This document shows positions 14,998-32,264 of a stretch of DNA of 41,692 bases, piece by piece. The notes under the pieces are model-generated. The model saw only the letters and a list, made by a program, of their open reading frames with translations. It searched no databases and had not been told where the DNA came from. Made by a program: the position numbers and the translations under genes. Within the stretch, counting starts at the first letter, position 1. Every line of letters starts with the position of its first letter. This DNA is from an uncultured Clostridia bacterium (GTDB lineage Bacteria; Bacillota; Clostridia; Oscillospirales; Ruminococcaceae): assembly GCA_944382885.1 (NCBI GenBank), contig CALWNT010000066.1, forward strand, positions 1 to 41,692, given 5' to 3'.

Positions 14998-15431
14998 ATA
15001 AACAGAAATTTAGCGCGCTTGTCGGCAAAGCCGACTGGCGCTTTATGGCGAGGGGAAGCCCCCCGCCATAAGCCACCCCCCAAATCTCGCTACAGCGAGA
15101 TTTGTTGATGTTCGATTCACCGCACATGTCGCTGAATCTAACATCGAAAAAGGGACTCCTATCCAAGTACAGCGGAAAATATTAGTTCCTACCAGCATAG
15201 CTGTCAGTCCGAGCGATAAACTAAATTTTTCCTTCTTAACGTGGTTAGAAGAACACTTCAAAGACCCGCACCAAAGCCCCTGCGGCGCTTGAGCAGGGCC
15301 CTTTCCACCTTTTGGGCAAACAAAAGGTGCCGGGGTCTGGGAGCCGGTGCTCCCAGATGCTTTCTTCTTTCGCTGAAAGAAAGTGATAGGAAAAAGTTGT
15401 GTTAAAATGGAACATTAAATTTCTATTTTTT
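14998..15431. repeat. Interspersed palindromic element R1
   Basis: The left end is ATAAACAGAAATTTA (14998-15012); the right end is a decayed inverted copy TTAAATTTCTATTTT (about 15416-15430). The left arm holds the GTCGGC/GCCGAC and GGCGAGGGGAAGCCCCCCGCC hairpins and AAATCTCGC/GCGAGATTT. The core has GAGCGATAAACTAAATTTTT, which is shared with R2-R5. The right arm is the TTTCTTTC/GAAAGAAAG type, unlike R2-R5. A frame of 87 codons (minus, 14903-15166) inside it recurs in R2 and should not be called a gene. The rest of the 14882-15564 gap holds only the yebC promoter and a leader hairpin. Confidence 0.9.
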
Positions 15432-15490
15432 AAAACAACAATTTTGACAAAAATTTCCCCTGATAATTTTTCTCGCTTTCCATATACTAT

Positions 15491-15516
15491 GATTGTCGGA
15501 AATCAATCCGACAATC
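15491..15516. repeat. Inverted repeat upstream of the small gene
   Basis: GATTGTCGGA and TCCGACAATC are separated by six bases, about 50 bases before the small gene's start and just after a TATACT (15483-15488). It is a leader hairpin or a repressor site. Confidence 0.65.
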
Positions 15517-15564
15517 AGGTGAACAACCAATGGATTCACAATTACAGAAAGGAAGTTTTCTGCC

Positions 15565-15762
15565 ATGTCTCACAGTAAAAAAGCCAATAAACAGACCTCC
15601 ACCAACAAAAAAGCACCAGAATCTTCTATGAAAAACAATCAGTCTTTTTCTAACAGCGCAAAGGACTGCCATCGTTCTTCCTATGAAGACTGCCGCAAAT
15701 CTCAGTATAAGAATGATTCCCTTTCCGATTATGAAAGCAAATATGACGCCTATTTTCGGTAA
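15565..15762 (+). CDS. Small hydrophilic protein of unknown function
   Basis: 65 residues rich in Lys, Ser, Asn and Gln, with two cysteines (SAKDCHRSSYEDCRKSQY) and no hydrophobic segment. AAAGGAAG 11 bases before the ATG and an adjacent upstream inverted repeat support expression. The composition suggests a disordered or nucleic-acid/spore-associated peptide, but no family is recognised and it does not carry the alpha/beta-type SASP motif. It is flanked by repeat R1 and a strong terminator. It may be lineage-specific. Confidence 0.55.
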   Translation: MSHSKKANKQTSTNKKAPESSMKNNQSFSNSAKDCHRSSYEDCRKSQYKNDSLSDYESKYDAYFR

Positions 15763-15857
15763 GCCGCAGTTTTAAAATTTCCAAAAATTCCTGTGAATCT
15801 CACTGCTTTTTCGAAAAATCATTTCAGCATTCTCTGTCACCGACTCTGAAAAATTTC

Positions 15858-15895
15858 AAGGAATCCCCCCTTATATGAAGAAGGGGGGATTCCTT
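15858..15895. terminator. Strong hairpin between convergent genes
   Basis: A 15-bp stem AAGGAATCCCCCCTT (15858-15872) / AAGGGGGGATTCCTT (15881-15895) with an eight-base loop. T-rich stretches follow on both sides, but they are short. Confidence 0.75.
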
Positions 15896-15897
15896 AT

Positions 15898-16785
15898 TTA
15901 CGCATGGGAAAGAAGCGGGAAAAGCAGTTGTCCGTTGGGAAATAAATTTTCTTTTTCTTGGTAAAGGAAAAGCGTTTCATCTTCTTCCTGCCAATCTATA
16001 CCCACATAGTCGCCGGTTGGAGAAAAATATAATACGGCTCTCTTGGTCTCGGGACGGGCAATCTCATTGAGTATTTGTTCCAAAGAAGCGGAAGTGTTTC
16101 CTAAAATCTGATAGCAGGATAATTCTTCTTTTTGGTATTCCGCGATTACCACCAGATCTTCTGATTCCAGATAATAAATACAGTCTTTGGCAAATCCGGA
16201 GCAATGGAACATCAGCAGTCCCCAATTATCAGTGAGAGAAAACCTGGAAAAGGGTTCCCCTAGCACATATTTTTCTTTGAGTAGTTTCCGATCCTCCTCG
16301 GAATCAATATCCAATTTTCTTACCCGTTGTGGCTGCGGGGTAACGGGAAGAACACATCTGCTTTCTTTTCCTTGCTGGAATCCAAATTTCGGATAAAAAT
16401 CCAGTACGGTATGATTGGCAAACAGATAAATTCCATCGCATTCTTCTTTCCAGTCATCCAAAACCCGCTGCATCAGATAGCGGGATAACCCTCTTTTCCG
16501 ATAACCCGGTTCTGTCATAACAGTTCCCAGCTGAATATACAGGCGTTTTTCTCCCTCATACAGAAAGGGCATGCGATTTACCGATACATTGGCCACCGCT
16601 TTTCCCTGATCGAATAGGGTATAGGGACAATATTGGTCTGTCCAATATCCTTTTTGAAACCATTCTTCAAAAGAAAGGCCGAAAACAGTATGAGCAAGAT
16701 GCTCAAATGCAATACGCTCTTCTTCCTGTAGCCGCACCTGATTAGAAAAGCCATAACTTTGTCCATTTAGTAGAATTCTTTCCAT
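15898..16785 (-). CDS. GNAT family N-acetyltransferase
   Basis: 295 residues. The GNAT domain is in the first half: YTLFDQGKAVANVSVNRMPF, then LGTVMTEPGYRKRGLSRYLMQRVLDDW, in which RKRGLS is the acetyl-CoA pyrophosphate loop (about 100-106), then IYLFANHTVLDFYPKFGF. The C-terminal half (about 150-295) is an additional domain with strand-rich sequence, as in two-domain Eis-like or YkkB-type acetyltransferases. It probably acetylates a small amine or protein in the cytosol. It is a single gene, with a terminator hairpin immediately downstream and the HAD pseudogene behind it on the same strand. Confidence 0.85.
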   Translation of the reverse strand: MERILLNGQSYGFSNQVRLQEEERIAFEHLAHTVFGLSFEEWFQKGYWTDQYCPYTLFDQGKAVANVSVNRMPFLYEGEKRLYIQLGTVMTEPGYRKRGLSRYLMQRVLDDWKEECDGIYLFANHTVLDFYPKFGFQQGKESRCVLPVTPQPQRVRKLDIDSEEDRKLLKEKYVLGEPFSRFSLTDNWGLLMFHCSGFAKDCIYYLESEDLVVIAEYQKEELSCYQILGNTSASLEQILNEIARPETKRAVLYFSPTGDYVGIDWQEEDETLFLYQEKENLFPNGQLLFPLLSHA

Positions 16786-16833
16786 AAATTACACCTCTTT
16801 CCCGCTTTCTGAGCAAAAAGTTGTCGATTAAAG

Positions 16834-17517
16834 TCATTCTATCAGCAGCTGCGGAATTTCAGACAAGCTGCTGCAGCAATAATCCGCAGCGGATGAAGCT
16901 CCTTGATGCACTAAAATTGTTTGGAATCCGGCCGCTTTTCCGCCTTCTATATCAGCTATCGGATTATCTCCAATCATATAATAAACTTCTGGAAAACCCG
17001 CAAGACTCAAAGCATACTGGAAGAGTTTTTTTCGCGGCTTTTCATATCCGATATTGGAAGAAACGATATAACCGGAAAAGCACGGTGATAATCCAAGTTC
17101 TTCTATCACAGCCGGCAGTTCAGGATAATTATTGGAGAGGATATAATTGTCATACCCCTTTTCGATACACGCAGACAAAACTGCGTTGGCATCTTCATAA
17201 AGCCTATAACTGTTACAATCCAAAATCTGATGCTTAAAGTCTTCCTTTAGCGCCGCATAATCTTTCTGAACAATACGATGTCTTAGAAAAAACAGATCAA
17301 ATTTCTCAAAAAGATGCTCCCATCATTTTGAACCGGTTTGGTCGGGATAGGCAGTTTCGGGAGTATACCAAGAACAGGCCGTTTTTAAAAAAGCTCTGAT
17401 TTATTCAGAAGGAATCTCATATCCCGTCTTGTTCAAAGATTGATATAGGGCGGACAAAAATGATTCGTTAGGATGTATGATAGTACCGTCGAAATCCCAA
17501 AATAAAGCTTTTTTCAA
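16834..17517 (-). pseudogene. HAD family hydrolase, inactivated by two in-frame stops
   Basis: One continuous reading frame of 228 codons encodes a complete HAD phosphatase except for TAA at codon 39 (17403-17401) and TGA at codon 65 (17325-17323). A TTG start at 17517, seven bases after AAGGAGGG, gives motif I as ALFWDFDGTIIH. Motif II is NYILSNNYPE, the motif III lysine is in GYEKPRKKLF, and motif IV is MIGDNPIADIEGGKAAG. The stops fall in YEIPSE-stop-IRAF and TGSK-stop-WEHLF, where Glu and Trp codons are each one base change away. No frameshift is present. The downstream 129-codon piece from 17223 lacks the catalytic Asp and would not work alone. Its intact ribosome site and motifs suggest recent inactivation, or sequencing error. 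Confidence 0.85.
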
Positions 17518-17627
17518 AATACTCCCTCCTTAAAAAATGAAAACAACCTGTATCGAAAGAAAAAAATTACAGTTTGTTTCTGGATGATATGTTTGATTGT
17601 AGCATATTTATCCAGGGAATACAAACC

Positions 17628-18012
17628 AAAACAGAAATTTAGCGCGCTTGTCGGCAAAGCCGACTGGCGCTTTATGGCGAGGGGAAGCCCCCCGCCATAA
17701 GCCCCCCCCCAAATCTCGCTACAGCGAGATTTGTTGATGTTCGATTCACCGCACATGTCGCTGAATCGAACATCGAAAAAGGGACTCCTATCCAAGTACA
17801 GCGGAAAATATTAGTTCCTACCAGCATAGCTGTCAGTCCGAGCGATAAACTAAATTTTTCCATCTTCACTTGGTTAGAAGAACACTTCAAAGACCCGCAC
17901 CAAAGCCCCTGCGGCGACTGAGCGGCGCCCTTTTCCTCAATTTTGGGCGAGCAAAATTGAGCCGGGGCGTGGGGGTCGGTACCCCCACATAGAAAAATAA
18001 ATTTCTGTTTAT
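17628..18012. repeat. Interspersed palindromic element R2
   Basis: Ends are AAACAGAAATTTA (about 17628-17641) and TAAATTTCTGTTTA (17998-18011). Its left arm is nearly identical to R1, and its right arm (CTCAATTTTG/CAAAATTGAG and GGGGGTCGGTACCCCC hairpins) is nearly identical to R3 and R4. R2 is thus a chimera of arm types. It lies between the 5' end of the HAD pseudogene and the spoIIR terminator. Short open frames within it are not genes. Confidence 0.92.
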
Positions 18013-18025
18013 TTTTCCACTTTCT

Positions 18026-18069
18026 AAAAAAACAACTGCCTTCGAGCCAAGCGAATGAAGTTGTTTTTT
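18026..18069 (-). terminator. Intrinsic terminator downstream of spoIIR
   Basis: Minus strand AAAAAACAACT / AGTTGTTTTTT with an inner CTTCG/CGAAG-like stem and a T-rich tail. Confidence 0.75.
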
Positions 18070-18131
18070 ATCAAATTCGGCAAATTCATTTTGGATTACT
18101 TTTCTGAAAGCCGATTTCAAGCAGCCTAAAC

Positions 18132-18740
18132 CTATTCTCCATCCCAAAGAGACTTGAATTTCTCCCAGAGTTCCACTACCGCAAACTGTATTTCATACTC
18201 TTGTGGCTTTTCTACTATCTCCGCCTGTTCCGGTGTAAAATTTTCCTCCAGCTCCTGATGAGGCATCGCACAGGGAAGGCAAACCGCCGGATACAGCATA
18301 CACCACCAATTATGCCCAGCCGCTTCCCCAATGGTGATGCGCACCGCGTCATAATGTCCTGCGGGCAGGGTAAATTCCTCATAGACCCTGGTATCAAAAA
18401 ACATATTTACCACTTCGGCCTTGACCGGATAGTCATATCCCTGACGCTCTACTTCTTCCTGAGCCGTTTGCTGGATCTGCTCCAAATGCTCCTGAGCGGA
18501 CTGTTTCGCGTCCTCTAAATTATCCGCATGATAAAATAATTCCTCTGTCTCTTTCAAAACCCGATCACGCACCTTAAGCTTTAACGCCTGGTCCTCCTGG
18601 GAATCAGAATTGGCTAATATATGAAGCCGAAGCACGTTCTCTCTAATCTGGGCACATTCCGCCGCAAATCCTGTGGAAAATTGCAGGACTATAGCCGCAA
18701 TCAGCCCAACACAAATGGCCGCTATCCATTTTTTCATCAC
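18132..18740 (-). CDS. spoIIR: Stage II sporulation protein R
   Basis: 202 residues with an N-terminal signal or membrane segment (KKWIAAICVGLIAAIVLQF). SpoIIR is made in the forespore and secreted across the septum, where it activates SpoIIGA to process pro-sigma-E in the mother cell. Family blocks are present: ENVLRLHILANSDSQEDQ, LKLKVRDRVL, VNMFFDTRVYEEFTLPAGHYDAVRITIGEAAG and HNWWCMLYPAVCLP. Length is close to known SpoIIR. This is the clearest marker that the host forms endospores. Sigma-F control is expected, but no convincing sigma-F promoter was identified. It follows ispE by 86 bases on the same strand. Confidence 0.94.
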   Translation of the reverse strand: MMKKWIAAICVGLIAAIVLQFSTGFAAECAQIRENVLRLHILANSDSQEDQALKLKVRDRVLKETEELFYHADNLEDAKQSAQEHLEQIQQTAQEEVERQGYDYPVKAEVVNMFFDTRVYEEFTLPAGHYDAVRITIGEAAGHNWWCMLYPAVCLPCAMPHQELEENFTPEQAEIVEKPQEYEIQFAVVELWEKFKSLWDGE

Positions 18741-18826
18741 AAAACCGCCTTTCCTTTTCTGATTTTTCTTCTGCTGGAGAATTTTCCCAAGAAAAGTATC
18801 GGCGGCTTTTACATCCTTTATTCAGT

Positions 18827-19717
18827 TCATTCAGTTTTCTCCAAAACAACAGGGCCATTGGAATAGGGGCTGCATAAAAAACAATCCGTGTATTTCTGTT
18901 TCAGCCTTTGTTCGCATTCATAGGCTTTTTTGCGGTCTAAAAAGAGCCCAAATACAGCCGACCCGCTTCCGGTCATCATGGCCCCCTTAGCCCCGCAGCC
19001 CATCATACTGTCTCGGATCATGCGGACTTCTCCCAAGGGACATACCTGCTCTAAAGCATTGTAAAGATTCTCACAGATGGCTCCATAATCCTCCTGCTCC
19101 ACAGCCTCCACCATCGCGGAAAACCTGTTGACGGGCTTGATCCCCAGCCGGTCAAAATCCTGAAACGCTTTCTGGGTGCTGATACCCCCTCTGGGCTTTG
19201 CGACTACCAATGCACTGTCAGGAAAATCTCGAAGCTTTGTAATCTGCTCCCCGATTCCTGCCACCTTCGCCGTTCCCCCGATCAGACAAAAGGGGATATC
19301 TGCCCCGATTTTTTCTCCGATTTTCATCAGCTCCTCAAGGGAAAGCGTTTCGCCATACATCTGGTTGAGCGCCATGAGCACCCCTGCTCCGTCGGCGCTT
19401 CCTCCTGCCATTCCCGCCTGCTGGGGGATTCTTTTTTCCAGATGAATGTGAAGCCCTCCGGAATGGATGCCCGTGTATTGGAAAAAACTTTCCGCACAGC
19501 GATAGGCGATATTTTTCTCATTGCAGGGCACAAAATCCCAATTGCAGGATAACGTAATTCCCTCCTGCCCGACCTGTTCTACTGTGATGATGTCGAAGAG
19601 GTCAATCGTCTGCATAATCATTTCCAGCAGGTGATATCCTTTGTCATTCACACCTATGATATCCAGGTAAAGATTCAATTTTGCCGGGGCCTTTACACGA
19701 ACTTTCTGTAAACTCAT
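18827..19717 (-). CDS. ispE: 4-diphosphocytidyl-2-C-methyl-D-erythritol kinase
   Basis: 296 residues, the usual length. It phosphorylates CDP-methylerythritol in the MEP isoprenoid pathway, in the cytosol. The GHMP kinase layout is clear: an N-terminal VKAPAKLNLYLDIIG with the conserved Lys and Asn, the glycine-rich ATP loop RIPQQAGMAGGSADGAG (about 95-111), the catalytic Asp in IGADIPFCLIGGTA, and a C-terminal MMTGSGSAVFGLF motif. It lies between the DUF362 ferredoxin gene (25-base gap) and spoIIR. Its presence shows the MEP rather than the mevalonate route. Confidence 0.96.
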   Translation of the reverse strand: MSLQKVRVKAPAKLNLYLDIIGVNDKGYHLLEMIMQTIDLFDIITVEQVGQEGITLSCNWDFVPCNEKNIAYRCAESFFQYTGIHSGGLHIHLEKRIPQQAGMAGGSADGAGVLMALNQMYGETLSLEELMKIGEKIGADIPFCLIGGTAKVAGIGEQITKLRDFPDSALVVAKPRGGISTQKAFQDFDRLGIKPVNRFSAMVEAVEQEDYGAICENLYNALEQVCPLGEVRMIRDSMMGCGAKGAMMTGSGSAVFGLFLDRKKAYECEQRLKQKYTDCFLCSPYSNGPVVLEKTE

Positions 19718-19742
19718 GGTTTTCGCCTCCCATCGACGCCCT

Positions 19743-20885
19743 TTATTTTCGAAACAGTCTGGAGCGTTTCATATCAATCGCCTTCACCGGACACATTTCA
19801 TGACAGCAGAAACATCGGATACAATTGCTGTAGTCAATCTCGGCCTTACGGTTTTTAATTTGAATCGTTTTGGCCGGACAGCTTTCCGCACATTTGCCGC
19901 ATCCAACGCAGTCCTTTCTTCGAATCACTGGCTTAGAAGTCAGAAACCGTTGGGTGATCGCCTTGACTGGTTTTTTGAAAATTCCCGGTACATGAGAGAC
20001 AAAATCAACGCTCATATCCTTTGGAAGTTTAAAATCCGTTATCCGTTCCGGTACAAAACCAACCAGCTCTAATTTCTCCAGCCTGTCTACACACAACTGT
20101 TCCGCCATCGCAGCTTTCACGGTTAAAATTTGCTCCGCTTCCAGCCCAATCAGCCAAGTGAGATAATAATCCAGATCATAAGGAGAATCAGAAGCTAAAA
20201 TCATCCCGGTTTCCCGTTTTGTCCCTCCAGACGGACCGTCCCCTTCCATCGATACCACCGCGTCCGTTAACACAACATCAGGATGTACGGTCTGGCACAG
20301 ATCGACAAGCATCTGACAGAACAATTCCTTTTGAGGAAAACGCCAGTGAAATTCCGGCTTGGTCAATCCTGGAATACATCCGAACAGATTTTTTACCCCT
20401 CCACTCAGACCTGTCATTCCATGACTTTTCAGCTTACAGACGTCAATGAGAAAATCTGCCTGAGCTACCGGATTGATAATCGGAAAGGACTTTACCAATT
20501 GGGCCTGCTCATTGACCACATTTTGAAAGCCGGTATCGAAATTCAGCTTTGCACCGGTTTTTTCGCAAACCGCTGCCATACCGCTGGCTTCATAAATCCC
20601 CTTCAGGGCCGACGGCGTATACAGTCCTCCCGGACTATCCGCAACTGTAATATCAGTGATTCCCGCACTTTGCAGATACAAAATCACGCCTTCAATCAAG
20701 CTGGGATGAGTGGTGGTAAACTCTTCGGGCTTACGTTTCATCAGCAAATTAGGCTTTATGGTCACCCGCATTCCCGGCTTCAGCTTTTCGGTCAAGGAAA
20801 AGCGATCTAAATGAATCTTTATCGATTCATTGATTTCTTCCTGACAATAGGTTTTATTTTCTGTAATACTGATTACCGACATCAT
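19743..20885 (-). CDS. DUF362 protein with two 4Fe-4S ferredoxin motifs
   Basis: 380 residues. The DUF362 domain (about 30-300) contains RVTIKPNLLMKRKPEE, VADSPGG, and KLKSHGMTGLSGGVKNLFGCIPG. The C-terminus (about 320-370) carries two cluster motifs, CVGCGKCAESCP and CIRCFCCHEMCP, each CxxCxxCxxxCP. The family is a putative iron-sulfur oxidoreductase or electron-transfer protein common in anaerobes; its reaction is not known. Start codons ATG 20885 and 20882 both follow GGAGAA. A promoter is present at 20979-21008. Downstream ispE is 25 bases away, so the two may be cotranscribed. Confidence 0.9.
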   Translation of the reverse strand: MMSVISITENKTYCQEEINESIKIHLDRFSLTEKLKPGMRVTIKPNLLMKRKPEEFTTTHPSLIEGVILYLQSAGITDITVADSPGGLYTPSALKGIYEASGMAAVCEKTGAKLNFDTGFQNVVNEQAQLVKSFPIINPVAQADFLIDVCKLKSHGMTGLSGGVKNLFGCIPGLTKPEFHWRFPQKELFCQMLVDLCQTVHPDVVLTDAVVSMEGDGPSGGTKRETGMILASDSPYDLDYYLTWLIGLEAEQILTVKAAMAEQLCVDRLEKLELVGFVPERITDFKLPKDMSVDFVSHVPGIFKKPVKAITQRFLTSKPVIRRKDCVGCGKCAESCPAKTIQIKNRKAEIDYSNCIRCFCCHEMCPVKAIDMKRSRLFRK

Positions 20886-20978
20886 CTATTCTCCATCTAA
20901 AACTATTTTAACCGTCCCTGCCTGCCGCGAACTTTTTACAAGGTCCTCCACATGATCTTTTGGAGCGGATTTTTTTCT

Positions 20979-21008
20979 AGTATAGCATAATTGTCCCCCT
21001 GCGGTAAA
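20979..21008 (-). promoter_or_regulatory. Probable sigma-A promoter of the DUF362 gene
   Basis: Minus strand TTTACC (21008-21003), an 18-base spacer and an extended TGCTATACT (-10 at 20984-20979). Confidence 0.5.
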
Positions 21009-21083
21009 GAAAAAAACAGTTTCGTGAGGCAGTTCACTCCCTATCGGCAATGTACTTTTTCGATCAATCTATTTCGGGGAAAG

Positions 21084-21462
21084 ATAAACAGAAATTTATT
21101 CTACAGAACCAAGAAGGTTCTGTATTCCCATTTGCCGGGCGTTTCACCCCGGCACCCCGACTTCCTTTTGATCCACGTCAAAAGGAAGCAAAAACGTGCC
21201 CCTCGCCGGGGAGGCTATACGAGTCTTTGAAGTTGGCTTCTAACGGAGTACAAGGGAAAATATTAGTTCCTACCAGATAGCCGTCAGCCCAAGCGATAAA
21301 CTGAATTTTTCCTTCTTAACGTGGTTAGGAGAACACTTCAAAAACCCGTACCAAAGCCACCGCGGCGACTGAGCGGCGCCCTTTTCCTCAATTTTGGGCG
21401 AGCAAAATTGAGCCGGGGCGTGGGGGTCGGTACCCCCACATAGAAAAATAAATTTCTGTTTA
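21084..21462. repeat. Interspersed palindromic element R3
   Basis: Ends ATAAACAGAAATTTA (21084-21098) and TAAATTTCTGTTTA (about 21449-21462). Left arm: AGAACC/GGTTCT hairpin, GCCGGGCG..CACCCCGGC, CTTTTGATCCACGTCAAAAG. Core: AGCGATAAACTGAATTTTT. The right arm is as in R2 and R4. It fills most of the gap between the DUF362 gene start and the yitT terminator. Confidence 0.92.
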
Positions 21463-21478
21463 TTTACCTCACAAATCT

Positions 21479-21525
21479 TACCCCCCTCCAGGGATTTAGC
21501 TGCATCAAATCTCTGGAGGGGGGTT
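21479..21525 (-). terminator. Long hairpin downstream of yitT
   Basis: ACCCCCCTCCAGRGATTT-type arms form an approximately 18-bp stem with one mismatch, just after the yitT stop. The T tract is weak. Confidence 0.65.
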
Positions 21526-21540
21526 ATCTTACAGAAAAAA

Positions 21541-22410: not shown

Positions 22411-22475
22411 ACCGTTTCACTCCTCTAACATGGTGTAAATAATCGCCAATCTATTTGACCGCACCTAAAAAGGGA

Positions 22476-22871: not shown

Positions 22872-22899
22872 CCTATCCCTCTTCTCGTCTCTCTTCCTA

Positions 22900-24201
<1,302 letters not shown>

Positions 24202-24374: not shown

Positions 24375-24756
24375 TAAACAGAAATTTATTTTCCAGAACC
24401 AAGATGGTTCTGTATCTAGCTTATAGGGGCGTCGGCCCCCAAACCCCGAGTCTCTTTTGCTTGTCCAAAAGAAACAAAAAGGGCATTCCTCAAACGCCGG
24501 AAAGGCTTGATATAGGTCTTAAAAGTCGACTCCTAACGAAGTACAACGGAAAATATCAGTTTCTGCTAGAACAACCGTCAGCCCGAGCGATAAACTAAAT
24601 TTTTCCTTCTTCGTGTGGTTAGAAGAACAGTTATTAGACCCGTACCAAAGCCGCCGCGGCGACTGAGCGGCGCCCTTTTCCTCAATTTTGGGCGAGCAAA
24701 ATTGAGCCGGGGCGTGGGGGTCGGTACCCCCACATAGAAAAATAAATTTCTGTTTA
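24375..24756. repeat. Interspersed palindromic element R4
   Basis: Ends ATAAACAGAAATTTA (24375-24389) and TAAATTTCTGTTTA (24743-24756). This copy shows the internal symmetry best. The left arm and the reverse complement of the right arm share, in order: a hairpin, a G/C run (GGGG..CCCCC), CCCCG, a T-rich/A-rich hairpin with GCTTGTCC or GCTCGCCC in its loop, a GGGC block, CGCCG..GGCTT, GGTCT, CTAAC, GGAAAA and AGTTT. It separates obg from rpmA. Confidence 0.93.
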
Positions 24757-24785
24757 ATTTATCAAAAACCATTTTTTCTGCTTGT

Positions 24786-24818
24786 AAAAAAAGCGTGCTT
24801 ATGAAAGCACGCTTTTTT
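24786..24818 (-). terminator. Intrinsic terminator of rplU-prp-rpmA
   Basis: AAAAGCGTGCTT / AAGCACGCTTTT with a four-base loop and T tract, twelve bases after the rpmA stop. Confidence 0.92.
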
Positions 24819-24829
24819 AAAGTTCATCA

Positions 24830-25111: not shown

Positions 25112-25113
25112 AC

Positions 25114-25428: not shown

Positions 25429-25433
25429 AACGA

Positions 25434-25745
25434 TTAAGCGTTGATAGATTCGATTCTTACCTTGGTGTAAGCCTGTCTGTGTCCCATTTTACGTGCAGAA
25501 GATTTTTTTGGTTTGTAAGTGAAAACGGTAATTTTCTTACCTCTACCGTTTTTTACTACGGTAGCTTTTACAGAAGCGCCGTCTACATAAGGAGCGCCGA
25601 CAACCATACCATCTTCTTTTGCAACTGCAACGACTTTGTCAAAATTTACTTCAGTGTTTTCTTCTACACCCAGCTTTTCAACAAAAATTACGTCGCCTTC
25701 GTTTACACGATACTGTTTTCCACCTGTTTCAATCACTGCGTACAT
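25434..25745 (-). CDS. rplU: 50S ribosomal protein L21
   Basis: 103 residues beginning [14 protein letters not shown], with the C-terminal [14 protein letters not shown]; it binds 23S rRNA in the large subunit. The longest frame starts at a TTG (25748) immediately before the ATG; the ATG is chosen. The AGGTG site lies within a palindrome AAGGCA..TGCCTT, so access to it may be regulated. First gene of rplU-prp-rpmA. Confidence 0.98.
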
Positions 25746-25836
25746 CAATAAGGCACCTGCCTTTTCTATAATCTCGCTATTCCAAGGCGCATACGCCTAT
25801 AAAAGCGCATGACTTCAAAAGCCCAGTATATGCGGC
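25746..25836 (-). promoter_or_regulatory. Possible L21 leader
   Basis: A 90-base structured 5' leader between promoter and rplU. It has an ATGCGC..GCGTAT hairpin, an overlapping GGCGTATGCGCC, and an AAGGCAGGTGCCTT palindrome over the ribosome site. Firmicutes have a described L21 leader in this position; the match is by position and layout only. Confidence 0.4.
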
Positions 25837-25842
25837 CTTATT

Positions 25843-25871
25843 ATTTTATCATAGCCCCAAAGGCTTGTCAA
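25843..25871 (-). promoter_or_regulatory. Sigma-A promoter of rplU-prp-rpmA
   Basis: Minus strand TTGACA (25871-25866), a 17-base spacer and extended TGATAAAAT (-10 at 25848-25843). Confidence 0.85.
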
Positions 25872-25923
25872 GAAAAACCGCCGATCTGGTTTGTGATTCT
25901 TTGCAGTTTTCCTCTTCTCACAG

Positions 25924-25947
25924 GAAAAAGGCCTTTTACCGCCTTTC
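25924..25947 (-). terminator. Terminator downstream of capA-like gene
   Basis: Minus strand AAAGGC, eight-base loop, GCCTTT plus TT, about 30 bases past the stop. Confidence 0.55.
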
Positions 25948-25975
25948 CTTTGGCAAAAAGCACCAGGAAAAGCCC

Positions 25976-27229
25976 TTAAAATACCTTAATAAATTCCGCC
26001 GGAATAATATCTTTTACCAGATTCTGGATGTATTCCAAACTGAAATCAGGAGTTTCGCTGCGGATGCCATGCTGGCTCGCCAAGGTATCACTGTACTGAG
26101 AATACGGAATCACCTGAATGTTGGAGAATCTGCTTCCGTAGTGAGTAATCAGCGGTTCAAACACCACATTGTCGATGGAGATGGTATTGGTCTCAAAATT
26201 CTTAGTGATCTCATACTGCACCATCCCCCCGACCACTCTGGGAGCCGCATCCTGGGCGGAAATGAAATTCCCCAAAGAGTAGACCACAAGGGCCTTTTCT
26301 CCATTGGGCTTTGTCAGATACTCTATCGGCTGAAGCACATGAGGATGGTGCCCGATGATGACATCCGCTCCCCAGTTTACCATCTGCTGGGCCAAATTCC
26401 GCTGATTTTCTGTCGGCTCATAGGAATACTCATTTCCCCAGTGGACATTGACAATCACTACGTCGCAAACCGCTTTGGCGGCTTCAATCTTCTTTTTCAA
26501 AAGATCTGTCTCAGACGTGAGGATATATCTCAGCTCGCTTCCCTCAGGCAAAGAGAGACCGTTTGTATAGTCCGTTGCACCTACATAGCCGAATTTAATG
26601 CCGTTGCACTCATTATACTCTACGGTATTGAGCTGTTCTTCATTGAGATAAGCCCCAGTGGTCACGATCTTCGGCGCTTTGGCATTCCAGTAGGTAATAG
26701 CGTTTCTCAGACCGGATTCATACATATCGATCATATGGTTGTTGGCGAGATTGACTACGTCAAATCCCAAAGCTTCCAGCTCGTCCCCCACCTCTACCGG
26801 AGAGTTGAACTGAGGATAGGAGGATGGTTCCTGCTCTGAGTCGATGATCGTCTCCTGATTGATAGTGGCGATATCCGCGCTGCTCACCAAGTCAGCCATT
26901 TTCTCATAGGCAAAAGAAAAATCATAGCCATTTCCGCCTGCCCGCTGATTTGCCTGCTGATAGAGGTTGGAGTGGATCAGATTATCCCCCACTGACAGGA
27001 ATTTTACTGTTGCCGGAGCCTGTACTTCTTCTTTCGAGGTCTCAGACGATTCTTGAGAAGCGGTCGACACGTCTTCCGAGCTTTCCTGTCCGCCGGACCC
27101 AATTTTATGAAACAGCCTCGTTCCCAAAACGATCAGGGCCACTACCAAAACCAGCGCTAAAACAGCAGCTAAAATCCTGCCCCAGCGCAATTTTCCCCTT
27201 TTCCGATAAATTTTCACTTGTTTTCCCAT
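25976..27229 (-). CDS. CapA family membrane-anchored metallophosphatase-like protein
   Basis: 417 residues. A basic start, one membrane helix (about 18-40) and a Ser/Glu/Thr-rich linker (about 46-70) anchor an extracellular CapA/PGA_cap domain. Metal-site motifs are SVGDNLIH, INQET, NLANNHMID, VNVHWGNEYS and IIGHHPHVLQPIE, then VYSLGNFIS. The fold is related to calcineurin phosphoesterases; CapA/PgsA takes part in poly-gamma-glutamate synthesis or anchoring, but capB and capC are absent, so another wall-related hydrolase role is likely. It lies 32 bases after dapB and is probably the last gene of the lysine-riboswitch transcript. Confidence 0.9.
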   Translation of the reverse strand: MGKQVKIYRKRGKLRWGRILAAVLALVLVVALIVLGTRLFHKIGSGGQESSEDVSTASQESSETSKEEVQAPATVKFLSVGDNLIHSNLYQQANQRAGGNGYDFSFAYEKMADLVSSADIATINQETIIDSEQEPSSYPQFNSPVEVGDELEALGFDVVNLANNHMIDMYESGLRNAITYWNAKAPKIVTTGAYLNEEQLNTVEYNECNGIKFGYVGATDYTNGLSLPEGSELRYILTSETDLLKKKIEAAKAVCDVVIVNVHWGNEYSYEPTENQRNLAQQMVNWGADVIIGHHPHVLQPIEYLTKPNGEKALVVYSLGNFISAQDAAPRVVGGMVQYEITKNFETNTISIDNVVFEPLITHYGSRFSNIQVIPYSQYSDTLASQHGIRSETPDFSLEYIQNLVKDIIPAEFIKVF

Positions 27230-27261
27230 TCTGACAGCCTTTCTGATTCAGTTCCTATTAT

Positions 27262-28014
27262 TCAGTCTACCATTTTGCTCATGTCATACAGTCCGGGTTC
27301 TTTCCCGATAAGGAACAATGCGGCGTTCACACTGCCCACCGCAAAAATTTCCTTGCTCATAGCTTGGTGCTTTAAGCTGATCACTTCGTCGTGCCCAGCA
27401 AAAATCACTTCGTGTTCGCCTACAATAGTACCTCCGCGGACTGCATGGATGCCGATTTCATCCTTATCCCGTTTTTTCCGCTGAGAATGACGGTCGTACA
27501 TATATTTTTGGGTATTGCCCAACGTCTCGTTAATCGCGTCCGCAATCATCAAAGCCGTTCCGCTGGGCGCATCAATCTTCTGATTATGATGTTTTTCGAT
27601 GATCTCAATATCAAACTGTCCACCTAAGATCTCAGTGGCCTTTTTCGCCAGGGTAACCAACAAATTGACTCCCAAAGACATATTGAAAGAAAAAAATACC
27701 GGAATTTCTTTCGCGCATTCCTTAATGTATGTAATCTGTTCCGGAGAAAAACCGGTGGTAGCCACTACCACTGGAAGCTTTCTCTCTTTGGCGTATTCCA
27801 TCAGAGGATGGATAAAAGCCGGATTGGAAAAGTCGATGATCACATCCGCTTCTCCCGTATAATCTTCCGGATTCTGATAAATAGGAAAATCGCTGTAAAC
27901 ATTGGTGTTAAGATCAAATCCGGCAGCTACCCGGCAGCCTTCCCGCTCAGATACACACCGCTCGATCACATGTCCCATTTTCCCGTTTGCACCACTTAAA
28001 ATAATCTGTACCAT
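27262..28014 (-). CDS. dapB: 4-hydroxy-tetrahydrodipicolinate reductase
   Basis: 250 residues. The NAD(P)H site is LSGANGKMGHVI (residues 6-17), and the catalytic block is IEIIEKHHNQKIDAPSGTAL (about 145-164), with the HH pair and Lys of the family. It reduces hydroxy-tetrahydrodipicolinate in lysine and diaminopimelate synthesis, also supplying dipicolinate for spores. Site GAGGAAG precedes the ATG. It follows dapA, but a terminator-like stem lies between them, so dapB-capA expression may be lower than, or separate from, asd-dapA. Confidence 0.96.
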   Translation of the reverse strand: MVQIILSGANGKMGHVIERCVSEREGCRVAAGFDLNTNVYSDFPIYQNPEDYTGEADVIIDFSNPAFIHPLMEYAKERKLPVVVATTGFSPEQITYIKECAKEIPVFFSFNMSLGVNLLVTLAKKATEILGGQFDIEIIEKHHNQKIDAPSGTALMIADAINETLGNTQKYMYDRHSQRKKRDKDEIGIHAVRGGTIVGEHEVIFAGHDEVISLKHQAMSKEIFAVGSVNAALFLIGKEPGLYDMSKMVD

Positions 28015-28043
28015 AAATACACTTCCTCAGCTTTGAAGATGGC

Positions 28044-28076
28044 AAAAAGGGCCTATGCAGAAGCTGCACAAACCCT
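28044..28076 (-). terminator. Terminator-like stem between dapA and dapB
   Basis: Minus strand GGGTTTGTGCAG, loop CTT, CTGCATAGGCCC form a 12-bp stem (with G-U pairs), followed directly by TTTTT. A free AAGGAGG lies just before it. Confidence 0.65.
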
Positions 28077-28092
28077 CCTTACCAAAATTTTT

Positions 28093-28983
28093 TTATTTCA
28101 GCAAGCCTGCCGCCTGCATCGCTTTTTTCAATTTTTCTCTATCCCCGTCGGACATTTCATATAACGGCAGCCGGCAAGGACCTGCGTTCATTCCCATTAA
28201 ATTCATGGCTTCCTTCACCGGGATGGGATTGACGTCGATAAACAAAGCGTTCATCAGATTCAAAAGCTTGAGCTGCAGTTCCATGCTCTCCTGGGTTTTT
28301 CCGTCAAAATAAAGCTGACAGATATCGTGAGTTTCCTTCGGCATGACATTGGATAAAACCGAAATCACACCTACGCCGCCCAAAGAAAGGATCGGAACAA
28401 TCTGATCGTCGTTTCCGGAATAAACATCCAGGTTGTCGCCGCACAGATGACGGATCTTTGCCACCTGGGAGATATTCCCGCTGGCTTCTTTAATCGCCAC
28501 GATATTGGGGATATTGGAAAGCTCCAGACAAGTCTCCGGCGCGATATTCACCCCGGTACGGCTGGCGACGCTGTACATAATGATCGGCAGATTCACACTG
28601 GCCGCGACGGTCTGATAATGCTTTACCAGCCCTCTTTGAGAGGTTTTATTATAATAGGGAGTCACCAGCAGCAGGCCGTCTACCCCCAGCCGTTCCGCCT
28701 CCTGAGAAAGCTCTACGCAGTAAGCGGTGTCATTGCTTCCGGTACCGGCAATTACCGGAATCCGTTTGTTGGTTCGTTCCACCGCAAAGCGGATCACCTC
28801 ACGGTGTTCCACGTCGTTTAAGGTCGCCGATTCACCGGTGGTACCGCAAATAATAATCGCATCTGTGTGGTTTTCGATCTGAAAGTCGATCATTTCCCCC
28901 AATTTGTTGTAATTGACGGACATATCCTCATTCATCGGAGTTACAATCGCCACACCAGCGCCTTTAAAAATTCGATTTTTCAT
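28093..28983 (-). CDS. dapA: 4-hydroxy-tetrahydrodipicolinate synthase
   Basis: 296 residues, usual length; a TIM-barrel aldolase condensing pyruvate with aspartate semialdehyde. CGTTGESATL (the pyruvate-binding TTGE), the Tyr in TPYYNKTSQRG, IMYSVASRTGVNI and the Schiff-base lysine in VAIKEASGN are present in order. It lies 31 bases after asd in the same transcript under lysine-riboswitch control. Confidence 0.97.
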   Translation of the reverse strand: MKNRIFKGAGVAIVTPMNEDMSVNYNKLGEMIDFQIENHTDAIIICGTTGESATLNDVEHREVIRFAVERTNKRIPVIAGTGSNDTAYCVELSQEAERLGVDGLLLVTPYYNKTSQRGLVKHYQTVAASVNLPIIMYSVASRTGVNIAPETCLELSNIPNIVAIKEASGNISQVAKIRHLCGDNLDVYSGNDDQIVPILSLGGVGVISVLSNVMPKETHDICQLYFDGKTQESMELQLKLLNLMNALFIDVNPIPVKEAMNLMGMNAGPCRLPLYEMSDGDREKLKKAMQAAGLLK

Positions 28984-29014
28984 GTAGAAAACTCCTTTTC
29001 ACCTGAAAGTCAAG

Positions 29015-30100
29015 TTAATCCAGATAGCCTTTTGCAGCCAGCAGCTCTGCCAGCAGGACTGCGCCTCCCGCAGCGCCGCGCAGAGTATTGTGAGACATGC
29101 AGACAAACTTGTAGTCATACTGGCTGTCTTCTCTCAGACGGCCAATGGAAACTGCCATGCCGTGCTCCAATTCTCTTGCGGATTTGATCTGCGGCTGGTC
29201 GTTTTCTTCAAAATAGTGGAGGAAGTGCTTCGGTGCAGAAGGCAGTTCCAATCTCTGAGCCTCACCCACAAAGGAAGCCCATTTTTCTTTGATTTCCTCA
29301 ATGGAAGGCTTTTTCCCCTCTTCGAAAGACATAAACACCGCGGCGGTATGCCCGTCAGAAACAGGAACCCGCAGACACTGTGTGGTAATAGCCGGACCTT
29401 TGGCGTCCTCGATGTGGTCGCCTTCCACTTTACCCCAGAGCTTTAAGGGTTCTTTTTCGGACTTTTCCTCTTCCCCACCAATATAGGGGATCAGGTTATC
29501 CACCATTTCAGGCCAGGTTTTGAACGTTTTTCCAGCACCGGAAATTGCCTGATAGGTGCAGGCCAGCACTTCTTTCAGTCCGTATCCCAGCAGCGGATGA
29601 AGCGCCGGAACATAGCTCTGAAGGGAACAGTTGGATTTGACTGCCACAAAGCCCCGTTTGGTGCCTAAGCGCTTTCTCTGAGCCGGGATCACTTCCAGAT
29701 GCTCCGGATTGATTTCCGGCACTACCATTGGAACGTCCGGTGTATGCCGATGGGCGGAGTTATTGGAGACAACCGGGCACTCTGCTTTCGCATAAGCTTC
29801 CTCCAACGCCTTAATTTCATCTTTTTTCATATCTACTGCGCAGAACACAAAATCTACCATAGAGGCGATCTTTTCAATGTCTGCGGTAGCATCCATAATG
29901 ACCATATCTTTCATGGAAGCGGGCATTGGATCGCTCATCGCCCAGCGAGAGCCCACCGCTTCCGCATAGGTTTTCCCAGCGCTTCTCTGAGAAGCCGCCA
30001 GCGCCTTCACCTGAAACCACGGATGATTTTCCAGCAAAAGGGCAAATCTCTGTCCTACCATTCCTGTCGCACCAATAATACCTACCTGAAACTGTTTCAT
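29015..30100 (-). CDS. asd: Aspartate-semialdehyde dehydrogenase (archaeal/fungal-type)
   Basis: 361 residues. The NADP loop is VGIIGATGMVGQRF (6-19), and the catalytic Cys is in VAVKSNCSLQSYVPALHPL, with the spacing of the archaeal/fungal ASADH branch rather than the classical bacterial one. The second block AISGAGKTF follows. It converts aspartyl phosphate to aspartate semialdehyde, the branch point to lysine/DAP, threonine and methionine. It is the first gene behind the lysine riboswitch. The long distance from promoter to ATG (about 380 bases) is filled by that riboswitch and its terminator. Confidence 0.95.
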   Translation of the reverse strand: MKQFQVGIIGATGMVGQRFALLLENHPWFQVKALAASQRSAGKTYAEAVGSRWAMSDPMPASMKDMVIMDATADIEKIASMVDFVFCAVDMKKDEIKALEEAYAKAECPVVSNNSAHRHTPDVPMVVPEINPEHLEVIPAQRKRLGTKRGFVAVKSNCSLQSYVPALHPLLGYGLKEVLACTYQAISGAGKTFKTWPEMVDNLIPYIGGEEEKSEKEPLKLWGKVEGDHIEDAKGPAITTQCLRVPVSDGHTAAVFMSFEEGKKPSIEEIKEKWASFVGEAQRLELPSAPKHFLHYFEENDQPQIKSARELEHGMAVSIGRLREDSQYDYKFVCMSHNTLRGAAGGAVLLAELLAAKGYLD

Positions 30101-30195
30101 TACACATAACCCTTTCCAAACGAAATTTGATTGCCAGACTGCCCCACCGCTATTGGAACAGCGAACCGTTATAAATAAGCGGCTGAAATTGGAGA

Positions 30196-30222
30196 TGAAA
30201 AAAACCGGTTGAAAACCGGTTC
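30196..30222 (-). terminator. Lysine-riboswitch terminator
   Basis: Minus strand AACCGGTT, TTC, AACCGGTT followed by TTTTT. The CTACCGGTTG at the 3' edge of the aptamer can pair with the first arm, giving the antiterminator. Confidence 0.85.
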
Positions 30223-30287
30223 ATCATATTATATAATGGAAAAGCTGGCTGAAGATTCAATATTTGACAATTGCTTTTTACTTTTTC

Positions 30288-30463
30288 AACCGGTAGCTCT
30301 CCATCAAGATAATTGATGACAATCTGATGCCTCTTTAGCAACAGATCAGGGAACTGGCGCCAACACAAATCCCCTTCGGCGGATTCGCCTTTCAAAATAT
30401 GTTCAGACGGCTTTCGGCAAGCCTCACATATCCCTACTTTTCGACATCCGCGACCTCTATCCG
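30288..30463 (-). promoter_or_regulatory. Lysine riboswitch (L-box)
   Basis: The minus strand reads ATAGAGGTCGCGG, AAAAGTAGGG, GAGGCTTGCCGAAAGCC, AAAGGCGAATCCGCCGAAG, a long GGCATCAGATTGTC..GATGG arm, and GGAGAGCTACCGG. This is the five-helix lysine aptamer order with its conserved junction blocks. It precedes asd-dapA-dapB and a matching terminator/antiterminator. High lysine should stop transcription. Confidence 0.93.
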
Positions 30464-30485
30464 ATTCTCCATGTTTGTTGTTTCT

Positions 30486-30514
30486 ATCATATCATCTAAA
30501 TTTCGCGGTGTCAA
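30486..30514 (-). promoter_or_regulatory. Sigma-A promoter of asd-dapA-dapB-capA
   Basis: Minus strand TTGACA (30514-30509), a 17-base spacer and TATGAT (30491-30486), about 20 bases before the lysine aptamer. Confidence 0.85.
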
Positions 30515-30556
30515 TTCTTTTATGGAAATTTATCGATACACAAAATCCCATTGTCC

Positions 30557-30680
30557 TTCTGTCGGCCGTTTTCGGAAATATTTCACAAAAGCGCTGTTAC
30601 TGTCTGGAAAATGCTGTATGATTTTTTTACGCCCACGCTCGTGCGCCTGTTCCTAGAAGTAATCCTCTTGGCCGACAGAA
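30557..30680. repeat. Long-range 11-bp inverted repeat upstream of queA
   Basis: TTCTGTCGGCC (30557-30567) and GGCCGACAGAA (30670-30680) enclose 102 bases, ending 45 bases before the queA ATG. They may close a structured leader. The longest queA frame extends into it without a ribosome site, so the segment is treated as noncoding. Confidence 0.6.
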
Positions 30681-30724
30681 AAAATCCGTTATATTTTATA
30701 TTCTATGCAAGATGGAGGATTCCT

Positions 30725-31750
30725 ATGAAAACCAGTGATTTTTATTATGATCTGCCTCAGGAGCTGATTGCTCAAACCCCAATCGAACCCAGGGATCATT
30801 CCCGTCTGCTCGTTCTGGACCGAAAGACCGGTGAAACGACAGACCGTCATTTTTACGATATTTTGGATTACCTGAAAGAGGGAGACCTTTTGGTCATCAA
30901 CAATTCCCGTGTCCTCCCCGCAAGGCTGTATGGCGTCAAGGAAGAAACTGGTTCCCATATGGAACTGCTTCTTTTAGAGCAAAAGGAAAACATGGTTTGG
31001 GAAACCTTAGTAAAGCCTGGGAAAAAAGCCCGTGTAGGGGCAAAATTCATCTTTGGGGACGGCCTTTTAAAAGGCGAGATCATCGAAGTCAAGCCGGACG
31101 GCAACCGGCTGATTCGCTTTGAGAGCCAGAAAAACTTTTTTGAGGCTCTGGAAGAAATCGGGCAGATGCCCTTGCCGCCCTACATTACCCAAAAATTGGA
31201 GGACAAAGAACGGTATCAGACCGTTTATTCCAAAGAACTTGGTTCTTCTGCCGCTCCTACTGCCGGACTGCACTTTACAACGGAACTGATGGAAAAAATC
31301 CGCGCGAAGGGAATCAAGATCGCTGAGGTGACCCTTCATGTCGGGCTGGGCACTTTCCGCCCAGTCAAGGCGGAAGAGATCACCGACCACAAAATGCACT
31401 CTGAGCACTACTACATTCCCAAAGAAACCGCCGACTTAATTAACCAGACCAAGCAAAACGGCGGACGGGTCATTGCCGTGGGTACCACCTCTTGCCGCAC
31501 TCTGGAAAGCGTCGCTACCTTTTTTGGCGAAATCAAGGAATGCGAAGGATATACCGACATTTTCATCTATCCCGGCTACGAGTTTAAGGTGCTGGATGGG
31601 CTGATCACCAATTTCCATCTGCCGGAAAGTACCCTGATCATGCTGGTCAGCGCTCTGGCGGGATACGATCACACAATGAAGGCCTACGAACACGCAGTCA
31701 AAGAACAGTACCGCTTTTTCAGCTTTGGGGATGCGATGCTGATTTTGTAA
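30725..31750 (+). CDS. queA: S-adenosylmethionine:tRNA ribosyltransferase-isomerase
   Basis: 341 residues, usual length. It transfers ribose from SAM to preQ1 in tRNA, giving epoxyqueuosine. The N-terminus [31 protein letters not shown] is typical, here in blocks: [12 protein letters not shown] and [10 protein letters not shown]. Later motifs are [40 protein letters not shown] and [16 protein letters not shown] lies eight bases before ATG 30725; the longer frame from 30551 is rejected. The queuosine partner tgt is 1.2 kb away on the other strand. Confidence 0.97.
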
Positions 31751-31757
31751 AAAACAA

Positions 31758-31806
31758 AAAGGGAAGTTTCTTTATTCGGTACGAATATGGAAACTTTCCT
31801 TTTTTA
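31758..31806 (+). terminator. Intrinsic terminator of queA
   Basis: AAAGGGAAGTTTC / GAAACTTTCCTTT enclosing TTATTCG / CGAATA, with a following T run. Confidence 0.88.
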
Positions 31807-31817
31807 TTTATCATAGA

Positions 31818-32264
31818 AACAAATAGAAATTTATCTTTCTATGCAAAAACAACTTTTCTCTATCACTTTCTTTCGGAGAAAGAAGAAAGCTATGCGGGGA
31901 GCCGCCCCGCACGCGGCCTACTTTGATCAGCGTCAAAGTTAGGCAAAACGCTTCACTCAAACGCCGTGAGGGCTTGGAGTGGGTCTTAAAAGTTGTCTCC
32001 TAACGAAGTACAACGGAAAATATCAGTTTCTACCAAAACAACCGCCAGCCCGAGCGATAAACTAAATTTTTCCTTCTTCGCATGGTTAGGAGAACACTTC
32101 AAAGACCCGCAGAGAGCCGCCGCGGCGACTGAGCGGCGCCCTTTTTCTCAATAGTTGGGCAACTCAATAAATTGAGTCGCAAAATTGAGCCGGGGTGTGG
32201 GGGTCGGTACCCCCACAAACGGAGTTTAGAACCCATAGGCTTCTGTAAGATAAATTTCTGTTTG
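31818..32264. repeat. Interspersed palindromic element R5
   Basis: The longest copy, about 447 bp. Left end AAATAGAAATTTA (one change), right end TAAATTTCTGTTTG. The left arm begins with CTTTCTTTCGGAGAAAGAAGAAAG, which is the reverse complement of the module at R1's right end, then GGGGAGCCGCCCCGC and CTTTGATCAGCGTCAAAG. The right arm is the R2-R4 type with an added ATAGTTGGGCAACTCAATAAATTGAG stretch. It sits between the convergent queA and mntP genes. Confidence 0.9.

What the first reader, a model, noticed from the sequence alone, without database searches (positions are those of the whole stretch)
14998..32264. Five-copy family of modular, quasi-palindromic intergenic elements (R1-R5)
R1 14998-15431, R2 17628-18012, R3 21084-21462, R4 24375-24756 and R5 31818-32264 all lie between genes, in the same orientation, with inverted ends TAAACAGAAATTTA / TAAATTTCTGTTTA. 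The ends are not the only symmetry. The left arm and the reverse complement of the right arm carry the same ordered series of hairpins and short conserved blocks up to a central GGAAAA..AGTTT motif. Each element is thus a diverged inverted duplication. No transposase is encoded. Five copies in 17 kb is dense for a MITE. The folding of either strand into the same module order suggests the transcript structure is under selection.
Basis: seen in the sequence. Interest (0 to 1): 0.85.

Follow-up and report, generated by a model that had tools for sequence, protein, structure and literature searches.

The report
Pseudoknotted inverted-pair repeats between genes
One bacterial genome carries dozens of short non-coding DNA elements, each made of two unlike, mirror-placed arms built from hairpins and a pseudoknot, and the folded heart of the arm also turns up in distant bacterial phyla, which hints at an overlooked class of mobile or regulatory repeat.

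Summary
R1-R5 belong to a family of roughly 84 elements in this 2.56-Mb genome (168 terminal-repeat hits against 4 control hits; 150 arm matches, the scoring cap). No match was found in three congeners. Of 137 distinct arms read, 123 have an inward-facing inverted partner, and the spacer is 23 nt in 60 of 62 centres. Arms are strings of interchangeable hairpins. The loop of hairpin B and its downstream flank form a pseudoknot that covaries between copies (mean complementary run 4.21 against 2.93 shuffled, 0 of 2000). Hairpin B, the pseudoknot and hairpin C recur in a same-family genome, Spirochaetota and a Latescibacteria MAG. Stems are almost purely Watson-Crick; pooled, G-U is not favoured over A-C, though a post hoc split by strand hints at it (16 against 5). 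No target duplication was found (0 of 42), nor a Y1 transposase. Best reading: MITE-like, non-autonomous mobile DNA made of inverted, unlike copies of a widespread REP-like hairpin-pseudoknot unit. The moving enzyme is unknown.

The parts
14998..15431 (+). Element R1 (left arm of a rarer hairpin-array type, right arm with hairpin A of type CTGGGAGC)
   Evidence: right arm core by CM at 15215-15333 (-)
17628..18012 (+). Element R2: left part 93% identical to R1, last 229 bp 90% identical to R4 (mosaic)
   Evidence: right arm core 17844-17964 (-)
21084..21462 (+). Element R3, exact 14-nt TIRs at both ends
   Evidence: right arm core 21295-21415 (-)
24375..24756 (+). Element R4 between obg and rpmA; the site is far shorter in three congeners
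31818..32264 (+). Element R5, between a queuosine-synthesis gene and an mntP-like gene (convergent)
   Evidence: arm cores 31914-32032 (+) and 32056-32179 (-)
24375..24388 (+). R4 left terminal inverted repeat
24743..24756 (-). R4 right terminal inverted repeat
24424..24441 (+). R4 left arm hairpin A
24450..24475 (+). R4 left arm hairpin B (stem 1 of the pseudoknot)
24481..24484 (+). R4 left arm: downstream partner of the hairpin-B loop (stem 2 of the pseudoknot; here with one T-G wobble)
24486..24507 (+). R4 left arm hairpin C with conserved loop TCAAACGCC and the following GGCT
24447..24565 (+). R4 left arm core (covariance-model match)
24566..24588 (.). R4 central spacer, 23 nt; 60 of 62 centres read have this length
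24589..24709 (-). R4 right arm core (covariance-model match)

Best explanation
A high-copy, non-autonomous, MITE-like mobile DNA family that, in its complete form, was found only in this genome. Each element is an inverted heterodimer: two diverged ~200-nt arms, bounded by a 13-nt terminal inverted repeat and joined by a 23-nt asymmetric spacer. Each arm strings together interchangeable hairpins around a REP-like unit (hairpin B, pseudoknot, hairpin C). SHOWN: copy number, fixed geometry, modular exchange, covarying stems and pseudoknot, the unit in other phyla, absence of the element at one orthologous site. INFERRED: an enzyme acting in trans recognises the ends and/or the folded single strand and spreads the element; tolerance limits it to spaces between genes, mostly behind stop codons; template switching and exchange between copies keep stems perfect; near-perfect palindromes are purged because long inverted repeats are unstable, which leaves unlike arms.
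For: About 84 copies, no match in 3 congeners. R4 site: 608-667 bp between aligned obg and rpmA flanks here against 81, 143 and 167 bp in the three congeners. 0 of 42 elements inside genes, 55 of 80 gene-facing sides are 3' ends, 19 of 38 fully flanked sites convergent. 123 of 137 distinct arms have an inward partner; spacer 23 nt in 60 of 62. Mosaic copies: R2 shares its left part with R1 and its right part with R4. Stems B: 513 Watson-Crick, 3 GT, 3 AC, 11 other in 52 distinct stems. Pseudoknot: 0 of 2000 shuffles as high in own copies, 0 of 3000 in 26 copies from other genomes. Unlike arms: 0 of 37 elements with arms at least 70% identical in the hairpin part, 4.0 expected, 46 of 5000 permutations as low.
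Against: No target-site duplication: 0 of 42 for 4 nt or longer, and 2-3 nt matches equal the shuffled level; a looser direct-repeat score was weakly raised (76 of 5000). No transposase or autonomous relative with these ends was found, but only 100 of 168 TIR places were listed and one transposase family was sought (Y1, absent). Movement itself was not observed: one clean empty site only. The 3' bias has no genome-wide baseline and used crude ORF calling. The post hoc strand split of wobble pairs (16 against 5) favours an RNA role.
Confidence: 0.52

Rival explanations
1. RNA-level element: the inverted pair guarantees that a transcript entering from either side reads the same order (A, B, pseudoknot, C), giving 3' UTRs a structure that blocks exonucleases, terminates transcription or binds a protein. 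The A-rich stretch between hairpin B and the second pseudoknot strand is typical of H-type RNA pseudoknots (recalled).
For: Covarying pseudoknot with A-rich linker in own and foreign copies; conserved unpaired loop TCANNCGCC; 55 of 80 gene sides are 3' ends and 19 of 38 fully flanked sites are convergent; R4 folds far below shuffles on both strands, z -11.6 and -11.1; some foreign units fold below shuffles, z -3.5 to -5.8 (L142, L132, L129); on the element's minus strand 16 GT against 5 AC in stems A-C (p 0.027, post hoc).
Against: Pooled over arms read inward, G-U is not preferred: GT 7, AC 14, GT 3, AC 3 (B stems). In co-directional settings element polarity is not tied to gene direction (5 same, 8 opposite). 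No Rfam match. Whole-element z-scores are expected for any long inverted repeat; the isolated R4 units and the G198 unit fold little or no better than shuffles (z -0.32, -1.19, -1.53).
Confidence: 0.26
2. DNA-structure element: the unit folds in single-stranded DNA into a hairpin with an A-tract triplex or pseudoknot (like intrastrand-triplex repeats) that acts on replication, recombination or chromosome folding; spread by recombination, not by a transposase.
For: Near-pure Watson-Crick stems; the A-tract of the stem is repeated in the following segment in many own and foreign copies (by eye); no TSD.
Against: Well-defined terminal inverted repeats and an element-free orthologous site point to insertion of a unit. 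No direct evidence of triplex.
Confidence: 0.15
3. Ordinary MITE of a known insertion-sequence family whose autonomous parent lies in a part of the genome not seen here; the hairpins are passengers.
For: TIRs, size, no coding capacity, copy number.
Against: No TSD; T left and A right of the ends are independent, so not a TA duplication; the hairpin unit is found in other phyla, so it is unlikely to be a mere passenger.
Confidence: 0.15
4. Assembly artefact or chance palindromes.
For: 202 contigs, many broken at or near elements; near-perfect palindromes assemble badly, which could itself deplete like-armed copies.
Against: 42 elements lie inside contigs with at least 40 nt of flank on both sides; controls near zero; constant 23-nt spacer.
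Confidence: 0.03

Closest known systems
REP/BIME/REPIN repeats (GTAG and CGTC superfamilies; PMC3733652, passages and section 14 read)
   Same: Short palindromic intergenic units, often as dimers; that paper reports preference for heterodimers in most families and suggests it protects from clearance of large hairpins, which resembles the unlike arms here. CGTC families also lack a dedicated transposase.
   Different: REPs are 20-40 bp palindromes tagged GTAG or CGTC. Here the unit is about 60 nt with two hairpins and a covarying pseudoknot, in elements of median 442 bp bounded by TIRs. No Y1 (RAYT) transposase was found in this genome.
MITEs (general; bcr1 of Bacillus cereus and Correia elements, recalled; only a search listing seen)
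   Same: Non-coding, high-copy, intergenic, TIR-bounded.
   Different: No target-site duplication detected; no parent transposase found; arms are modular and unlike.
Intrastrand-triplex / BoxC (TM-ECO) repeats (PMC4666352, abstract, sections 15-16 and passages read)
   Same: Hairpin followed by a third segment that repeats the stem's purine strand; intergenic; patchy among close relatives.
   Different: TM-ECO is a G/C-rich unit with a 37-nt consensus; the word pseudoknot does not occur in that paper's main text; no TIR-bounded inverted pair is described in the parts read.
BOX elements of Streptococcus (recalled)
   Same: Modular intergenic repeats made of swappable boxes.
   Different: Not tested here; BOX is a tandem A-B-C layout, not an inverted heterodimer (recalled).

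Membership tests
MITE | Terminal inverted repeats, short, non-coding | tested here: met
   TIR pairs in 42 elements, median 442 bp, longest frame 38-91 aa
MITE | Target-site duplication | tested here: not met
   0 of 42 at 4 nt or longer; 2-3 nt at shuffled level
MITE | Autonomous parent with the same ends | tested here: inconclusive
   No long TIR-bounded gene among the places inspected; 100 of 168 TIR places listed; genome 94% complete
REP/RAYT (REPIN) | Y1 transposase in the genome | tested here: not met
   PF01797: 0 in G000 and 0 in G198, which carries 8 matches to the unit; present in G420, G421, G422
REP | 20-40 bp palindrome with GTAG or CGTC tag | not tested
   Tags were not searched; the unit is modelled with 61 positions
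REP dimers | Inverted pairs, often heterodimers | tested here: met
   123 of 137 arms with inward partner; 30 of 37 elements pair group I with group II hairpins
Intrastrand triplex repeats | Third strand mirror-repeating the purine strand of a hairpin | tested here: inconclusive
   A-tract is repeated next to the stem by eye; triplex not modelled
Known structured RNA (Rfam 15) | Match above gathering score | tested here: not met
   None in the elements or in 12 foreign loci

The most novel reading that the evidence does not exclude
The B-pseudoknot-C unit is the first seen member of a bacterium-wide class of pseudoknotted REP-like repeats (this genome's phylum, Spirochaetota, Latescibacteria, perhaps Streptomyces) that moves as a folded single strand by an enzyme not yet recognised. 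In this species it has been captured between terminal repeats as inverted heterodimers and amplified to roughly 1.4% of the genome (84 copies of median 442 bp).
Probability: 0.35. Interest if true: 0.85.

Novelty: new variant of a known kind. Interest (0 to 1): 0.62.

Why it matters
A repeat unit whose pseudoknot covaries in copies from several phyla, matches no Rfam family and has no known mobilising enzyme is either a new class of mobile repeat or a new class of structured RNA. The family here, with about 84 natural variants in one genome and a strict unlike-arm, 23-nt-spacer geometry, makes the question directly testable: which parts must pair, at DNA or RNA level, and what moves it. It also gives a quantitative case for the heterodimer preference of REP dimers, which PMC3733652 says has no obvious explanation.

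Tried and rejected
RAYT/IS200 mobilisation: rejected for this assembly. TA duplication of an IS630-like enzyme: rejected; 19 of 42 have T on the left, 24 of 42 A on the right, 11 both, about 10.9 expected if independent, and 14 of 42 have the same base on both sides. Insertion into palindromes: inverted flank similarity is at chance (1784 of 5000), although single sites such as L010 look palindromic. Selection for one long rod (arm pairs with arm of the same element): not supported, same-element arms are less alike than mixed ones. Phage origin: core pattern 0 stretches, and the two TIR-pattern hits look like coding sequence by eye. Streptomyces matches: hairpin C and a GC hairpin are shared, B is missing in those read, and several overlap long open frames (of little weight in G+C-rich DNA), so kept as a lead only. 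Phylum search: 5 of 397 other genomes matched at E 2e-4 to 8e-4; by eye L170 and L173 show hairpin B with a pseudoknot but no C, while L171, L174 and L176 look like chance.

In one search, 43 loci were examined, 12 dropped because no stem B was found near the expected place, 5 as duplicates; one retained row (L170) sits on a wrong stem; L116, L129 and L132 were in the model alignment and 12 of the loci had been looked at. In alignment A2, 64 of the 77 available arms were used; 7 further arms had been skipped as too short. One search's typing misreads one arm (L076 left is type A5 by eye), which would make 31 of 37. The two sets of 42 elements share 40. In one search two of five measures did not beat shuffling clearly (pairs with double change 20 of 500 shuffles as high; further pair types 485 of 500).

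Literature: letters of the motif were sought in print (only hits in unrelated papers by title) and topics; no listed title or abstract describes this unit in the open-licence library. PMC8794818: abstract, outline and passages read.
Full report
WHAT WAS CHECKED. The five elements R1-R5 are present at the stated coordinates and share polarity. A search with R4 gave 60 matches although only 40 of 171 candidates were scored; R1 as query gave 59, with 40 of 152 candidates scored. The 14-nt end at up to one mismatch occurs 82 times forward and 86 times reverse, against 1 and 3 for the reversed pattern. That is roughly 84 elements if every element has two ends. A covariance model of the arm core found 150 matches, the maximum that was scored. 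Many unpaired ends lie near contig ends, so the assembly often breaks at elements.

ANATOMY. From outside inward an arm typically has the TIR AAACAGAAATTTA, a variable outer slot (nothing, a small AGAACC..GGTTCT hairpin, or longer arrays), hairpin A, hairpin B, a short A-rich stretch, hairpin C with loop TCANNCGCC or TCGCC, then GGCT and about 55 nt of core. The two arms face inward. Of 137 distinct arms in the loci held, 123 have an inward-facing partner, 11 are at an edge and 3 are without a partner in the alignment. Two of these three (R1, R2) have a left arm of the array type, and the partner of the third (L083) was found but ranked below the 150 aligned. The spacer between arm cores is 23 nt in 60 of 62 distinct centres and 22 in 2. 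It is conserved but not palindromic, which gives the element its polarity.

PSEUDOKNOT. The loop of hairpin B is complementary to four to five bases after the A-rich stretch, in several different letter versions. Counted on 64 arms, 16 pairs (10 in B, 3 in the pseudoknot, 3 in C) are 93.3% paired, with double changes at 13 pairs; sliding the partners by one to three columns gives 35-57%. Shuffling reaches the observed paired cells, double-change cells and covariation score in 0 of 500, but the number of pairs with a double change in 20 of 500 and the number of further pair types in 485 of 500. On 48 distinct arms (73 of 77 arms with a stem B) the longest complementary run averages 4.21, against 2.93 when downstream partners are shuffled (0 of 2000 as high) and 3.21 for the reversed loop. 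In 26 distinct copies from other genomes the mean is 4.23 against 3.35 (0 of 3000; dropped rows are told under tried and rejected).

DNA OR RNA. If RNA structure were the main target, G-U pairs should be tolerated on the functional strand while A-C (its image on the other strand) should not. In 52 distinct B stems there are 513 Watson-Crick pairs, 3 GT, 3 AC and 11 others; hairpins A and B of 77 arms gave 603 Watson-Crick, 5 GT and 7 AC. In 123 paired arms, stems A-C read inward have 893 Watson-Crick, 7 GT and 14 AC. Whole base-pair swaps with few intermediates are what template-switch repair of quasi-palindromes predicts (PMC8794818, abstract and passages read). Against this stands a post hoc result: when both arms are read on the element's minus strand the count is 16 GT against 5 AC (binomial p 0.027, one of several ways to split); the pseudoknot pairs do not show it (4 against 6 on that strand, from the same call). 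So a working structure is supported, its level is open, and one-directional transcription is a live possibility.

UNLIKE ARMS. Left and right arms of the same element are less alike (hairpin part 0.527) than left and right arms of different elements (0.561; 1994 of 2000 permutations at least as high). None of 37 elements has arms at least 70% identical in that part, 4.0 expected, 46 of 5000 permutations as low; at stricter thresholds the test has little power (544 to 1868 of 5000). With hairpin A sorted into two groups, 30 of 37 elements pair group I with group II (18.1 expected if arms were dealt at random, 0 of 10000 as high), 7 pair I with I, none II with II; the same hairpin-A type on both arms occurs in 2 of 37 against 6.2 (388 of 10000 as low). 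Part of this is descent of left from left and right from right arms; the first test controls for that. Preference for heterodimers is reported as without obvious explanation for REP dimers, with clearance of long hairpins as a suggested cause (PMC3733652, section 14). Poor assembly of near-perfect palindromes is a possible bias.

CONTEXT AND MOBILITY. None of 42 complete elements lies inside a gene; 55 of 80 neighbouring gene ends are 3' ends and 19 of 38 fully flanked sites are convergent (simple ORF calling, no genome-wide baseline). R4 sits between obg and rpmA, where three congeners have 81, 143 and 167 bp between the aligned flanks, against 608-667 bp here. The flanks of R1-R3 could not be compared because synteny is lost there, and R5 lies in a 1.1-kb stretch with an mntP-like gene that congeners lack at that place. 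Congeners have no match to R4 or to the arm model; one weak match (E 0.034) to the short model was seen in G003. No target duplication of 4 nt or more was seen in 42 elements. A looser direct-repeat score was slightly raised (76 of 5000). T on the left and A on the right are preferred but independent. Y1 transposases were not found in this genome and occur in 12 copies in congener G002. Mosaic copies show exchange: R2 shares its first part with R1 (93%) and its last 229 bp with R4 (90%).

BEYOND THE GENOME. A strict 25-nt hairpin-C pattern hit 12 stretches of other genomes: Spirochaetota MAGs, a Latescibacteria MAG, an Alphaproteobacteria MAG and Streptomyces. Of these, L129 and L132 carry hairpin B with the pseudoknot in full and L127 is cut by its contig end; a same-family genome (G198) has 8 matches of this kind. 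With a 61-position model, 18 of 392 genomes of the phylum of the Spirochaetes hit match at E 0.001 or better, two of which were known before. In the own family 2 of 396 matched the longer model (one is the own genome) and in the own phylum 6 of 398 matched the short one (five besides the own, all weak). Most foreign matches are listed singly; at least one genome has two in inverted orientation about 440 nt apart (G894), and TIRs were not sought there. A hairpin-C pattern occurs in 17 stretches of viral contigs, three times in tandem in one. Streptomyces matches lack hairpin B in those read and are only a lead.

VERDICT. A real, large, structured family. I file it as a new variant of REP/MITE-like mobile repeats, not as a member of either: the MITE test fails on target duplication and the REPIN test on the transposase. 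The most interesting part is the pseudoknotted unit shared across phyla, not matched by Rfam and not found in the open-licence literature by the searches listed.

Noticed in passing
window 30286-30468 (-) and 8050-8165 (-): Lysine riboswitch and glycine riboswitch above Rfam gathering scores.
   Followed up: no
window 16834-17513 (-): The open frames of the gene next to R2 look interrupted around 17224-17330 (by eye, its family was not searched).
   Followed up: no
L211 6767-6842 (viral contig IMGVR_UViG_3300021440_001025): Hairpin-C motif in three head-to-tail copies of 27 nt.
   Followed up: no
G424/G425 (Streptomyces), e.g. L143, L151, L164: 149 and 139 matches to the short model at E 0.1 or better, most with equal scores, some in inverted or tandem pairs; hairpin C plus a GC hairpin, no B in those read.
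   Followed up: partly
G002 (congener), 12 places: Twelve Y1 transposase genes, ten with identical scores, although no match to this element family was found there.
   Followed up: no
L095 1580-1770 and L107 1687-2130: Decayed elements whose right TIR is lost, so copies do degrade (by eye).
   Followed up: partly
flanks of 42 elements: Outside the TIR the bases G or A, then A, then T (reading inward) are preferred on both sides, perhaps an extended TIR or a palindromic target.
   Followed up: partly
stems of 123 paired arms: Wobble pairs are commoner on the element's minus strand (16 GT against 5 AC), a post hoc hint of one-directional RNA function.
   Followed up: partly
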